Shown: piece after piece, positions 54 through 8,533 of the stretch
Layout: every line of letters begins with the position of its first letter
Position numbering within the stretch: the stretch's first letter is position 1
Notes under the pieces: model-generated
Database searches by the model: none
What the model saw: the letters and a program-made list of their open reading frames with translations, nothing else
What the model was told of the DNA's origin: nothing
Position numbers and translations under genes: made by a program
DNA from: Candidatus Gastranaerophilales bacterium
GTDB lineage: Bacteria; Cyanobacteriota; Vampirovibrionia; Gastranaerophilales; Gastranaerophilaceae
Direction: 5' to 3'
Assembly (NCBI GenBank): GCA_944326585.1
Contig: CALVEN010000001.1
Coordinates: 310,001-374,000 of the forward strand
Length of the DNA stretch: 64,000 bases

Positions 54-90
54 TTGTCAAAATTTGTTATTCTTATAAAAAAATAAGGAG
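54..90 (+). promoter_or_regulatory. Putative promoter and RBS of the first leader-prepilin unit
   Basis: A TTGTCA box at 54-59 is followed by TATAAA at 74-79; the 14-base gap is short, so the promoter call is tentative. AAGGAG at 85-90 lies nine bases before the ATG at 100 and is a strong ribosome binding site. The second copy of this unit has TTGACA at 7461-7466, TTAATA at 7485-7490 and AAGGAG just before its ATG at 7512. Confidence 0.45.
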
Positions 91-99
91 AGTGTTGAT

Positions 100-138
100 A
101 TGACTAGTTTGAATAACGGGGGGGGGCGACTCCTCTAG
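100..138 (+). CDS. Short G9-containing leader ORF, 12 codons, upstream of prepilin 1
   Basis: The ATG at 100 has an AAGGAG site upstream and encodes MTSLNNGGGRLL before TAG at 136-138. Nine consecutive G (118-126) encode the three glycines. The prepilin frame (positions divisible by 3) contains no stop from 117 to the prepilin proper, so adding one G (or removing two) would fuse this leader to the prepilin. A near copy lies at 7512-7559. It is either the OFF state of a phase-variable start or the result of a miscounted homopolymer. Confidence 0.55.
   Translation: MTSLNNGGGRLL
118..126 (+). repeat. G9 homopolymer, candidate slippage tract
   Basis: Nine G in a row stand out in AT-rich surroundings. 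The tract sits six codons into the leader ORF and decides whether translation stops at 136 or continues into the prepilin frame. The second prepilin has a tract of the same length at the same place (7539-7547). Confidence 0.7.
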
Positions 139-175
139 GTACAGATAGCAAGGTTTTAGACGGTATTGGTTTAGT

Positions 176-401
176 AAAGATACTAAGATACTATGGCAGT
201 AAGGCACTAAGAAGTAACAGAAATGCAAGTCGTCATTACAAGGCCAACAACGAAATTGACAAAGAAGCAAATACAAATTATAATTCTAATATGATGAATT
301 ATAATTTAGAGATGCTGAAACGAGTTCAGCATGACAGCTCAGGGAGCGAAGCTCACAGTAAACACTTAGTGCCTTACTGTCTTAGTAACTTAGTATCTTC
401 T
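176..401. repeat. Inverted-repeat-bounded insert in the 5' part of prepilin 1
   Basis: The left arm (176-214, core AGTAAGGCACTAAG) and right arm (364-401, core CTTAGTGCCTTACT) are imperfect inverted repeats of nearly 40 bases. The reading frame stays open across the insert. Inside lies a small palindrome at 312-335 (TGCTGAAACGAGTTCAGCA). The same arm family bounds the S23 gene at 38155-38598 and the matching insert in prepilin 2, which suggests a shared mobile or recombinogenic origin. Confidence 0.7.
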
Positions 402-1097
402 AAAAAAATTGCCTTTACCTTAGCGGAGGTTTTAATAACCCTTGCCATAATCGGCATTGTGGCAGCCATGACTATTCCGACGCTTGTCGCCAAATATCAG
501 GAAAAGGTAATGGTAACAAAAGTTAAACAGGCTCATTCACAATTAATGAATGCAATACAGTTATATGTGGCAAAAAATAATTGTCAGAATATGCTTTGTT
601 TATTTGATACAAAAAAGACGTCGGATGAAGTAGCTGCAGAATTGGCAACTGTATTGAGAAAAGCAAAAGTATGCAAAAACGGTGATACTGAAAAGGCTTG
701 CAGATATTATGGTTTTAAGAGTAATAAACCTTTCATAGTAGATGGTGTTTATTCTGTTGGTGATGGTATGGGAACAACCGGTCGTATATATCTTCCAAAT
801 GGCATGATTTTTCGTGTAGGTCAGAATTCACAGTGCCCCAGCACTTATGAAACAATAATACGAGATGAAAACGGATACGAGATTGATCGTGTGGAATCAG
901 TAAGTCCTAATTGTGCTTATGTATATGTTGATATAAATAATATAGAAGGACCAAATCAGTTTGGTGCGGATGTATACAGGTATGATATTGAATACACCGG
1001 AAAAATCGAGCCGTATGACAAAAAATTATTAAATAATGCGCTTTTATATAACAAAATAGAATATACACCGTATAATATTGGTGATCCGGTTGAATAA
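291..1097 (+). CDS. Type IV/type II secretion prepilin-like protein, copy 1
   Basis: It is a class III signal-peptide protein. The segment KKIAFTLAEVLITLAIIG carries the phenylalanine, the +5 glutamate and the hydrophobic helix expected for prepilin peptidase processing, here starting about 40 residues into the 268-residue frame. The C-terminal domain has several Cys and a GPNQFGADVYRYD motif also present in the other two prepilins of the window. The start is uncertain: ATG 291 has no clear RBS, whereas ATG 100 has a good one but is one frame off because of the G9 tract. The residues just before the cleavage site are encoded by the inverted-repeat insert. It is a near duplicate of the gene ending at 8533. 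The role as a pseudopilin or minor pilin is inferred from the N-terminus. Confidence 0.85.
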   Translation: MMNYNLEMLKRVQHDSSGSEAHSKHLVPYCLSNLVSSKKIAFTLAEVLITLAIIGIVAAMTIPTLVAKYQEKVMVTKVKQAHSQLMNAIQLYVAKNNCQNMLCLFDTKKTSDEVAAELATVLRKAKVCKNGDTEKACRYYGFKSNKPFIVDGVYSVGDGMGTTGRIYLPNGMIFRVGQNSQCPSTYETIIRDENGYEIDRVESVSPNCAYVYVDINNIEGPNQFGADVYRYDIEYTGKIEPYDKKLLNNALLYNKIEYTPYNIGDPVE

Positions 1098-7394: not shown

Positions 7395-7511
7395 AACTAC
7401 TCTCCTGTAAACGGATTTTAACACAGAATATAAAGGACTTCAAGGGTGTTGATGATAAATTTGACAAAATATAAAAAATATGTCTTAATAAAAAAAGAAG
7501 GAGAAACGCTT

Positions 7512-7559
7512 ATGGAAAACAAAAGGTTTGAAAATAATGGGGGGGGGCGACTCTCCTAG
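7512..7559 (+). CDS. Short G9-containing leader ORF, 15 codons, upstream of prepilin 2
   Basis: The ATG at 7512 has AAGGAG upstream and encodes MENKRFENNGGGRLS before TAG at 7557-7559. As at 100-138, nine G (7539-7547) put the leader one frame off, and one more G would join it to the prepilin frame, which is open from 7538. Both leaders share NNGGGRL and the same frame relation. Confidence 0.55.
   Translation: MENKRFENNGGGRLS
7539..7547 (+). repeat. G9 homopolymer, candidate slippage tract (copy 2)
   Basis: It has the same length and same context (AAT before, CGACTC after) as the tract at 118-126. Confidence 0.7.
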
Positions 7560-7576
7560 ATAGAAATAGCAAGGGT

Positions 7577-8533
7577 TTGGGCGGTATATTCTGGGGAAAG
7601 TTACTAAGATACTATGATACTAAGGCACTAAGAAGTAACAGTCGGATTAGTAAATCCGACCTACAATATGTCATCCTGAACTTGTTTCAGGATCTCAAAA
7701 ACAATGTGAAGCCCCTCTCCCCCTTGGGGAGAGGGTGTCACGAAGTGACGGGAGAGGGGCTAAGTGGCAAAAATGTGAGCGAAGCCCACAGTAAACACTT
7801 AGTGCCTTACTGTCTTAGTAACTTAGTATCTTCTAAAAAAATTGCCTTTACCTTAGCGGAGGTTTTAATAACCCTCGCCATAATAGGTATAGTAGCTGCG
7901 ATGACTATTCCGACGCTTGTCGCCAAGTATCAGGAAAAGGTAATGGTAACAAAAGTTAAACAGGCTCATTCGCAGTTGATGAATGCAATACAGCTATATG
8001 TGGCAAAAAATAATTGTCAGAATATGCTTTGTTTATTTGATACGAATAAGACATCAGATGAGGTTATAGCGGAACTGGCGACTGTTGTCAGAAAAGCAAA
8101 AGTATGCAAAGAAGGTGATACTGAAAAGGCTTGTAAGTATTATGGTTTGAAAGATAATAAGCCTTCATATAAAGTGGATGGAGTTTATGCCTCAAGTGAC
8201 GGAATTACTACTAATGGTCGTATGTATTTGCCAAATGGTATGATATTTCAAGTGCGTCAGCGGTCTCAATGTCCGCGTACACTGGAAACAATAATACGAG
8301 ATGAAAACGGTTATGAGATTGATAGAATTGAACAAATTAGTCATTCTTGCGCAGTTGTCTATTTTGATGTGAATAATACGCAAGGTCCGAATCAATTCGG
8401 GGCTGACGTATATCGGTATAATGTTCAGGATACGGGGAAAATAGTGCCTGGTGACAAAAAACTATTAAACAATGCACTTTTGTATAATAAAATAGAATAT
8501 ACACCGTACAATATCGGAGATCCGGTTGAATAA
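7577..8533 (+). CDS. Type IV/type II secretion prepilin-like protein, copy 2
   Basis: It closely resembles the prepilin at 291-1097, with KKIAFTLAEVLITLAIIG, GPNQFGADVYRYN and a matching C-terminal tail. No in-frame ATG exists between the G9 tract and the prepilin motif; only TTG and GTG codons without RBS are available. This supports the leader ATG at 7512, reached by a +1 slip, as the real start. TTG 7577 is given as the current open frame. About 90 residues of insert precede the cleavage site, including translated palindromes that differ from those in copy 1. A terminator follows immediately. Confidence 0.82.
   Translation: MGGIFWGKLLRYYDTKALRSNSRISKSDLQYVILNLFQDLKNNVKPLSPLGRGCHEVTGEGLSGKNVSEAHSKHLVPYCLSNLVSSKKIAFTLAEVLITLAIIGIVAAMTIPTLVAKYQEKVMVTKVKQAHSQLMNAIQLYVAKNNCQNMLCLFDTNKTSDEVIAELATVVRKAKVCKEGDTEKACKYYGLKDNKPSYKVDGVYASSDGITTNGRMYLPNGMIFQVRQRSQCPRTLETIIRDENGYEIDRIEQISHSCAVVYFDVNNTQGPNQFGADVYRYNVQDTGKIVPGDKKLLNNALLYNKIEYTPYNIGDPVE
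7597..7834. repeat. Inverted-repeat-bounded insert in the 5' part of prepilin 2
   Basis: The left arm (7597-7634, beginning AAAGTTACTAAGATACTA) and right arm (7797-7834, the same sequence as in copy 1) are inverted repeats. Inside are a perfect hairpin at 7641-7660, a CATCCTGAA-type palindrome at 7670-7696 and a CCCCTCTCC/GGAGAGGGG palindrome at 7710-7761. The arms match copy 1 and the S23 element; the cargo differs. Confidence 0.7.

What the first reader, a model, noticed from the sequence alone, without database searches (positions are those of the whole stretch)
100..1097. G9 tract predicts an ON/OFF switch in front of prepilin 1
The best translation start (AAGGAG plus ATG 100) leads into nine G and then a stop at 136-138. 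The prepilin frame has no stop from 117 through 1097, so a +1 (or -2) change in the G run would fuse leader and prepilin. Long G runs inside 5' coding regions are classical slipped-strand phase-variation tracts for surface structures. As read here the gene would be OFF, or translated weakly from ATG 291.
Basis: partly seen in the sequence, partly recalled or inferred. Interest (0 to 1): 0.78.

Follow-up and report, generated by a model that had tools for sequence, protein, structure and literature searches.

The report
Slippage-switched pilin genes in gut bacteria
In this gut bacterium about 40 pilus-protein genes each begin with a run of about nine identical bases that usually leaves the gene out of frame, so that gaining or losing a base should switch it on or off; the mechanism is known from other bacteria, but a set this large, devoted to pilins, was not found described for this group.

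Summary
It is one of a genome-wide set: of 53 G/C runs of 7 or more, 38 lie within 700 nt upstream of one of 62 prepilins (1.35 expected), 36 of them in an open frame. The window holds a second copy (G9 at 7539-7547). Between run and prepilin, 28 of 28 main-class copies with a motif are open (0 stops; 282 and 309 in the other frames). None of 23 G9 copies offers the prepilin an SD-bearing start. Upstream of fusA, congener G008 has G10 and an intact 271-aa prepilin. Most copies are OFF: 32 of 39 here; 131 of 150 runs in four congeners are exactly 9. Other genera have G11-14, C9 or G14-18 before prepilins. Best reading: OFF-biased slipped-strand phase variation of a large prepilin set, inferred order Gastranaerophilales. 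Switching was not seen (no reads). The near-fixed nine keeps programmed frameshifting alive as a rival.

The parts
85..102 (+). Shine-Dalgarno AAGGAG (85-90) and start codon ATG (100-102) of leader/prepilin 1
   Evidence: the same SD-ATG arrangement precedes the run in the paralogues
118..126 (+). G9 run; OFF at nine, fused to the prepilin at ten
   Evidence: ten G in the copy at the same place in G008 goes with an intact ORF
136..138 (+). TAG ending the nine-G frame (short leader peptide)
127..413 (+). Open leader in the prepilin frame, built partly of dispersed repeats
   Evidence: 0 stops in the prepilin frame against 12 and 12 in the other two (L076); open in 28 of 28 own main-class copies with a motif
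177..211 (+). Left arm of a 35-nt inverted repeat inside the leader
   Evidence: 91% complementary
365..399 (+). Right arm of the 35-nt inverted repeat inside the leader
414..1097 (+). Mature prepilin 1 (FTLAEVLITLAIIGIVAAMTIPTL..), stop codon included
   Evidence: PF07963 N_methyl 23.8 bits, cut-off 21.2, query read from 291
7498..7514 (+). SD AAGGAG (7498-7503) and ATG (7512-7514) of leader/prepilin 2
   Evidence: L077
7539..7547 (+). G9 run of prepilin 2, OFF at nine
   Evidence: L077
7557..7559 (+). TAG ending the nine-G frame of copy 2
7548..7846 (+). Open leader of copy 2 in the prepilin frame
   Evidence: L077 (0 stops, against 10 and 11)
7847..8533 (+). Mature prepilin 2, 84% identical to prepilin 1, stop codon included
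   Evidence: PF07963 23.9 bits; identity

Best explanation
The G9 run is a slipped-strand contingency tract near the 5' end of a type IV-like prepilin gene, and the gene is one of about 40 of the same design in this genome. Translation starts at the SD-ATG before the run. At nine G it ends after about a dozen codons (OFF). At ten G it runs on through a long leader into the prepilin (ON). Most copies are OFF by default and a few ON, so cells should display changing small subsets of variable pilins. Shown: the anatomy, the open fused frame, the frame logic, the length difference at the same place between species, and the recurrence in other genera of the family. Inferred: that the length changes by replication slippage within populations, that ON copies make surface pilin, and that selection is for variation at the surface.
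For: 53 G/C runs of 7 or more in the genome; 38 lie within 700 nt upstream of a prepilin, 1.35 expected (with the 62 N_methyl matches), 36 of the 38 in an open frame. Own copies sharing the flank after the run: 31, lengths 24 x 9, 6 x 10, 1 interrupted G8AG; 28 of 28 with a prepilin motif are open, 3 had no motif in reach. States from the best SD-start: 7 ON, 28 one short, 4 one long, of 39. Of the 23 G9 copies, 15 have a stop 4 nt before the run in the prepilin frame; two have an upstream start in that frame, neither with an SD; none has an SD-bearing start after the run. Same place upstream of fusA: G9 (own, G011, G015), G10 with an intact 271-aa ORF (G008), G8A (G002). Public contigs: 105 distinct G9 copies, 76 with a motif, 73 open, 68 one short of ON (partly the same genomes as). 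Loci from four congeners: 22 one short, 4 ON, 1 one long, 1 unassigned, of 28. Other genera have runs in prepilin leaders: G11-14 in G024 (15 of 20 stretches), C9 in G027 (8 of 10 loci), G14, 16 and 18 in G035 (3 of 10). The usual OFF offset is one short in this genus but one long in G024. Runs of G8 or longer per genome: median 39.5 over 36 genomes of this family, 2 over 23 genomes outside it (my tally of the table). 31 mature prepilins share a median 62% identity over the first 50 residues and 20% beyond. Literature: in C. jejuni, G8/G9 mostly gain and G10/G11 mostly lose a base (passage of PMC4085013 citing earlier work), which would hold runs at 9-10.
Against: Within-population variation could not be tested. 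In four congeners 131 of 150 runs are exactly 9 and only 1 is 8, narrower than a freely drifting run, although 8 is also OFF. A full-length MutS1 is present, so slippage may be slow. Runs in G029 (0 of 20 stretches) and most in G018 (2 of 10) and G035 (3 of 10) could not be tied to a prepilin, partly because contigs are short. 24 of 62 own prepilins have no run within 700 nt upstream. The counts keep open frames only, so openness is evidence alone.
Confidence: 0.77

Rival explanations
1. Programmed frameshifting: the G9 run is held at nine, and RNA polymerase or the ribosome slips there in a set fraction of events, making a small constant amount of fused prepilin from every copy.
For: Length 9 is nearly fixed in the genus (131 of 150; 24 of 31 own); in the window copies a zero-frame stop follows the run closely; most copies need the same +1 shift (28 of 39 own; 68 of 76 public-contig copies).
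Against: The offset differs elsewhere: in G024, 13 of 15 are one long; G027's C9 copies with an assigned start (5) are one long. The nine own copies outside the main class are 4 one short, 3 one long, 2 ON. In E. coli and Buchnera all run-associated transcription insertions were in A/T runs (passage of PMC5574713), though long G/C runs are scarce in those transcriptomes. G10 and interrupted G8AG copies exist. The folding test addressed SD pairing only, not a frameshift stimulator.
Confidence: 0.14
2. Silent donor cassettes: most copies are never expressed and supply variable 3' parts by recombination to a few ON loci.
For: Multi-copy, conserved N-terminus and variable remainder; dispersed repeats in the leaders; the copy upstream of fusA is cleanly absent in G012, G009 and G001.
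Against: OFF copies keep their own SD, ATG and run and an open long leader, which silent donors need not; 7 of 39 copies are ON.
Confidence: 0.06
3. Artefact: the run length is an assembly or sequencing error, or the copies are decaying genes.
For: All lengths come from draft assemblies without reads.
Against: Nine recurs in several genomes; frames are open after the run; the G10 copy of G008 is intact.
Confidence: 0.03

Closest known systems
Poly-G contingency loci (phasome) of Campylobacter jejuni
   Same: Many G runs inside reading frames switch genes; NCTC11168 has 29 loci with poly-G/C of seven or more (abstract of PMC4965091 as shown in the listing).
   Different: There the genes are mixed (glycan, LOS and restriction genes; recalled). 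Here most runs sit in front of one gene type, prepilins, and the length is near-fixed at 9, OFF.
Neisseria pilC poly-G phase variation
   Same: A frameshift in a pilus gene turns piliation on and off (title in the reference list of PMC5084427).
   Different: pilC encodes an assembly/adhesin protein and is one or two genes (recalled); here the pilin-like subunits themselves carry the runs, about 40 of them.
Neisseria pilE/pilS antigenic variation
   Same: Large reservoir of pilins with conserved N-terminus and variable remainder (recalled for Neisseria; here).
   Different: pilS copies lack promoter and start (recalled) and act by gene conversion; here the copies have their own start and run.

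Membership tests
Homopolymeric-tract contingency (phase-variable) locus | Run of 8 or more identical bases in the 5' reading frame | tested here: met
   G9 at 118-126 after SD-ATG
Homopolymeric-tract contingency (phase-variable) locus | One-base change moves between a truncated and a full-length product | tested here: met
   intact G10 copy at the same place in G008
Homopolymeric-tract contingency (phase-variable) locus | Run length differs between related genomes at the same locus | tested here: met
   9, 9, 9, 10 and interrupted G8A upstream of fusA in 5 of the 15 genomes whose fusA locus was fetched; the other 10 show no run with a prepilin there
Homopolymeric-tract contingency (phase-variable) locus | Frequent reversible length change within one clone or population | not testable with these tools
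   no reads and no second assembly known to be of this species
Homopolymeric-tract contingency (phase-variable) locus | Expression follows run length | not testable with these tools
   no RNA or protein data
Type IV prepilin (class III signal) | FTLAE-type cleavage motif and hydrophobic N-terminal helix | tested here: met
   PF07963 over cut-off in both window copies
Type IV prepilin (class III signal) | Membership in a named pilin or pseudopilin subfamily | tested here: not met
   the six NCBIfam matches of each copy are below their cut-offs
Programmed frameshift site | Same shift direction conserved in relatives | tested here: not met
   mostly one short in this genus, one long in G024 (13 of 15) and G027 (5 of 5 assigned)
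Programmed frameshift site | Conserved stimulatory RNA structure | not tested
   asked only whether the SD pairs with the bases after the run; no stimulator search was made

The most novel reading that the evidence does not exclude
A family of gut-dwelling non-photosynthetic cyanobacteria has repeatedly evolved an OFF-by-default set of tens of prepilins, each held one slip from ON, so that each cell expresses a small random subset; in this genus the length may be actively held at nine so that low-level slippage samples the whole set at once.
Probability: 0.25. Interest if true: 0.8.

Novelty: new variant of a known kind. Interest (0 to 1): 0.62.

Why it matters
It points to a large, testable bet-hedging system on the surface of uncultured gut Gastranaerophilales (phage escape, host immunity or attachment; inferred), readable directly from existing metagenome reads. 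It also means that gene callers may miss or mis-start these genes: at nine G the true start and leader are out of frame with the prepilin.

Tried and rejected
SD-sequestering hairpin: the bases after the run often look complementary to the SD, but pairing above control was found in 14 of 35 loci only: all 6 class B loci scored (GGAGGTTAA..TTAACCTCC; strong) and 8 of 29 main-class loci. It was absent in the window copy (0.00) and below control in the second one (0.05 against 0.07). Rejected as a general feature.

A start codon downstream of the run: SD-bearing starts in the prepilin frame were found in 2 of 33 loci (L086, L108) and in none of the 23 G9 copies.

Phage-borne cassette: one exact pattern gave 0 matches in viral contigs.

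Loss of mismatch repair as the cause: MutS1 is present; 59 of 59 genomes matched, 54 over the cut-off. MutL was not searched.

Counting choices. The first openness count selected open frames by construction; one search repeats it without that condition and is the one used. Dropped there: 3 of 31 own copies (no motif in reach; one is cut by a contig end) and 29 of 105 public-contig copies (no motif within 800 nt); 3 of the 76 remaining were not open. The pattern admits nine G only, so those 105 copies say nothing about length, and they overlap with the congeners (for example L303 lies at the same contig number and position as a G009 match), so the two are not independent. One search left out rows repeated in overlapping stretches. 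admits only runs preceded by C and followed by its flank pattern; its lengths were counted by eye from the listing (one genome's counts checked). The G8-run comparison between families was not corrected for base composition.

Same-place comparison upstream of fusA, all 15 genomes fetched: run plus prepilin in 5 (own, G002, G008, G011, G015); prepilin but contig too short to show a run in G010; another prepilin without a run before it in G003; neither in G012, G009, G001, G007, G006, G013, G005; fusA start not found in G004. G015 is placed by position only; it was not among the 8 genomes aligned.

Literature: searches ('phase variation' with 'Melainabacteria', 1 paper, on flagellins; listing only; 'Gastranaerophilales' with 'pilin', 3 papers; passages of one, PMC5877343, which names pil genes and, in those passages, no runs) are complete lists. 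Searches were capped (30 of 1,389 and 10 of 386 shown); none of the 30 shown held the word Gastranaerophilales. No report of such runs was found; the library holds open-licence PMC papers only, and newer names such as Vampirovibrionia were not searched.

Full report
What is there. The window begins with SD AAGGAG (85-90), ATG 100, and G9 at 118-126. In the ATG frame the run is followed by CGA CTC CTC TAG, so translation stops at 136-138. The prepilin frame is closed by TAA at 114-116, just before the run, and open from 117 to its stop at 1095-1097. The mature prepilin starts at F414 and matches PF07963. A second copy has G9 at 7539-7547 with stop 7557-7559 and prepilin to 8533; the two mature proteins are 84% identical.

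It is a genome-wide set. Searching 401 bases around the run in the own genome gives 112 matches. 53 G/C runs of 7 or more were listed and fetched; their contexts are. The genome has 62 N_methyl matches; 38 have a run within 700 nt upstream, using 38 of the 53 runs, where 1.35 are expected. Two of these (L064, L079) have stops between run and prepilin; the other 36 are among the 39 open copies, which adds three that PF07963 did not list (L066, L096, L099). Three classes can be told apart: a main class (31 by flank), SD-ATG-short leader-G9/10-CGACTC; a class B with GGAGGTTAA..ATG..G7-12..TTAACCTCC, of which only L065, L070 and L108 were open to a prepilin; and a class C with the run as C7-11 on the coding strand inside the leader.

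The fused frame is real. Between run and prepilin, 28 of 28 main-class copies with a motif are open in the prepilin frame, with 0 stops against 282 and 309 in the two other frames; 3 of 31 had no motif in reach. The leaders differ greatly in length (29 to 578 nt) and contain different dispersed repeats, yet stay open. In 105 distinct G9 copies from public contigs, 76 had a motif, 73 were open (12 stops in all, against 357 and 516 in the other frames), and 68 were exactly one base short of joining the SD-ATG; 2 were one long, 1 was ON, 5 had no SD-ATG. These contigs partly belong to the congeners used below.

State. By the best SD-start, 39 own copies are 7 ON, 28 one short and 4 one long. In the 23 G9 copies there is no SD-bearing start in the prepilin frame before or after the run, so nine G means OFF unless the frame shifts. 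Thirty loci from four congeners gave 28 rows: 22 one short, 4 ON, 1 one long, 1 unassigned.

Length variation. In four congeners 150 runs of the main class are 131 x 9, 11 x 10, 1 x 8, 1 x 7 and 6 interrupted; the reversed control pattern gives 0 (counted by eye). Upstream of fusA, own, G011 and G015 have G9, G002 has an interrupted G8A, and G008 has G10 with a 271-aa ORF running from an SD-ATG into a prepilin that ends in the same residues as the window copy. The other 10 of 15 genomes show no run with a prepilin there; they are listed one by one under Tried and rejected. In G012, G009 and G001 the upstream flank and the fusA side align directly across the place of the gene, with an overlap of about 18 nt.

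Other genera. The main-class leader DNA was found in 12 of 16 genomes of this genus and in 0 of 43 outside it. Runs of G8 or longer are nevertheless common in the family (36 genomes, median 39.5, range 0-117) and rare outside it (23 genomes, median 2, range 0-15; my tally, not corrected for base composition). In G024, 15 of 20 fetched stretches have a G11-14 run before a prepilin in an open frame: 2 ON, 13 one long. In G027, 8 of 10 loci have C9 before a prepilin; in G035 3 of 10 (G14, 16, 18), in G018 2 of 10 (G11). In G029 0 of 20 could be tied to one. Recurrence with different run types, flanks and OFF offsets suggests that the run, not its flank, is what matters (inference).

Mechanism. 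Slipped-strand switching fits the frame logic, the 9/10 differences and the recurrence. The near-fixed nine has a possible mutational cause: in C. jejuni G8 and G9 mostly gain and G10 and G11 mostly lose a base (passage of PMC4085013 citing earlier work). Programmed slippage is weakened by the mixed offsets and by the report that run-associated transcription insertions in E. coli and Buchnera were in A/T runs only (passages of PMC5574713; long G/C runs are scarce there), but it is not excluded. MutS1 is present, so switching may be slow. Folding supports an SD hairpin only in class B.

Identity.

Novelty. The kind (homopolymeric contingency locus) is known. The searches named under Tried and rejected found no report of it in this group or for a prepilin set of this size; they cover open-licence PMC papers only and two of them were capped lists.

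Noticed in passing
window 177-211 / 365-399 and 7598-7648 / 7782-7832: Inverted repeats inside the prepilin leaders; both arms are read in the prepilin frame, and related arms recur many times in the genome.
   Followed up: partly
leaders of own copies, e.g. L074, L091, L104: Leaders are built of different dispersed repeats kept in frame (VILNLFQDLK-, CHPEAIAEG-, PTLTLPLKGG-like peptides), reminiscent of palindromic elements inserted in coding genes (recalled).
   Followed up: partly
L065, L070, L078, L079, L108, L111: Class B leaders: SD GGAGGTTAA and TTAACCTCC after the run form a strong predicted hairpin around ATG and run; run lengths 7-12; L078 and L079 are not open to a prepilin.
   Followed up: partly
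window about 50-1105 against L348, L349, L351: The whole prepilin gene upstream of fusA is cleanly absent in G012, G009 and G001.
   Followed up: partly
L106: Interrupted run G8AG in a frame that joins SD-ATG and prepilin, so this copy looks locked ON.
   Followed up: no
L144-L163 (G029): 92 runs of G8 or longer in this genome; at least 10 of 20 fetched stretches share the same sequence after the run (TAAACCGCTCA..), read as NRSxQRFWRFFxFLLS in five shown; not tied to a prepilin.
   Followed up: partly
L064, L071: G10 and G9 runs followed by similar sequence (both hold CCATACTTTA) in another, unidentified context.
   Followed up: no
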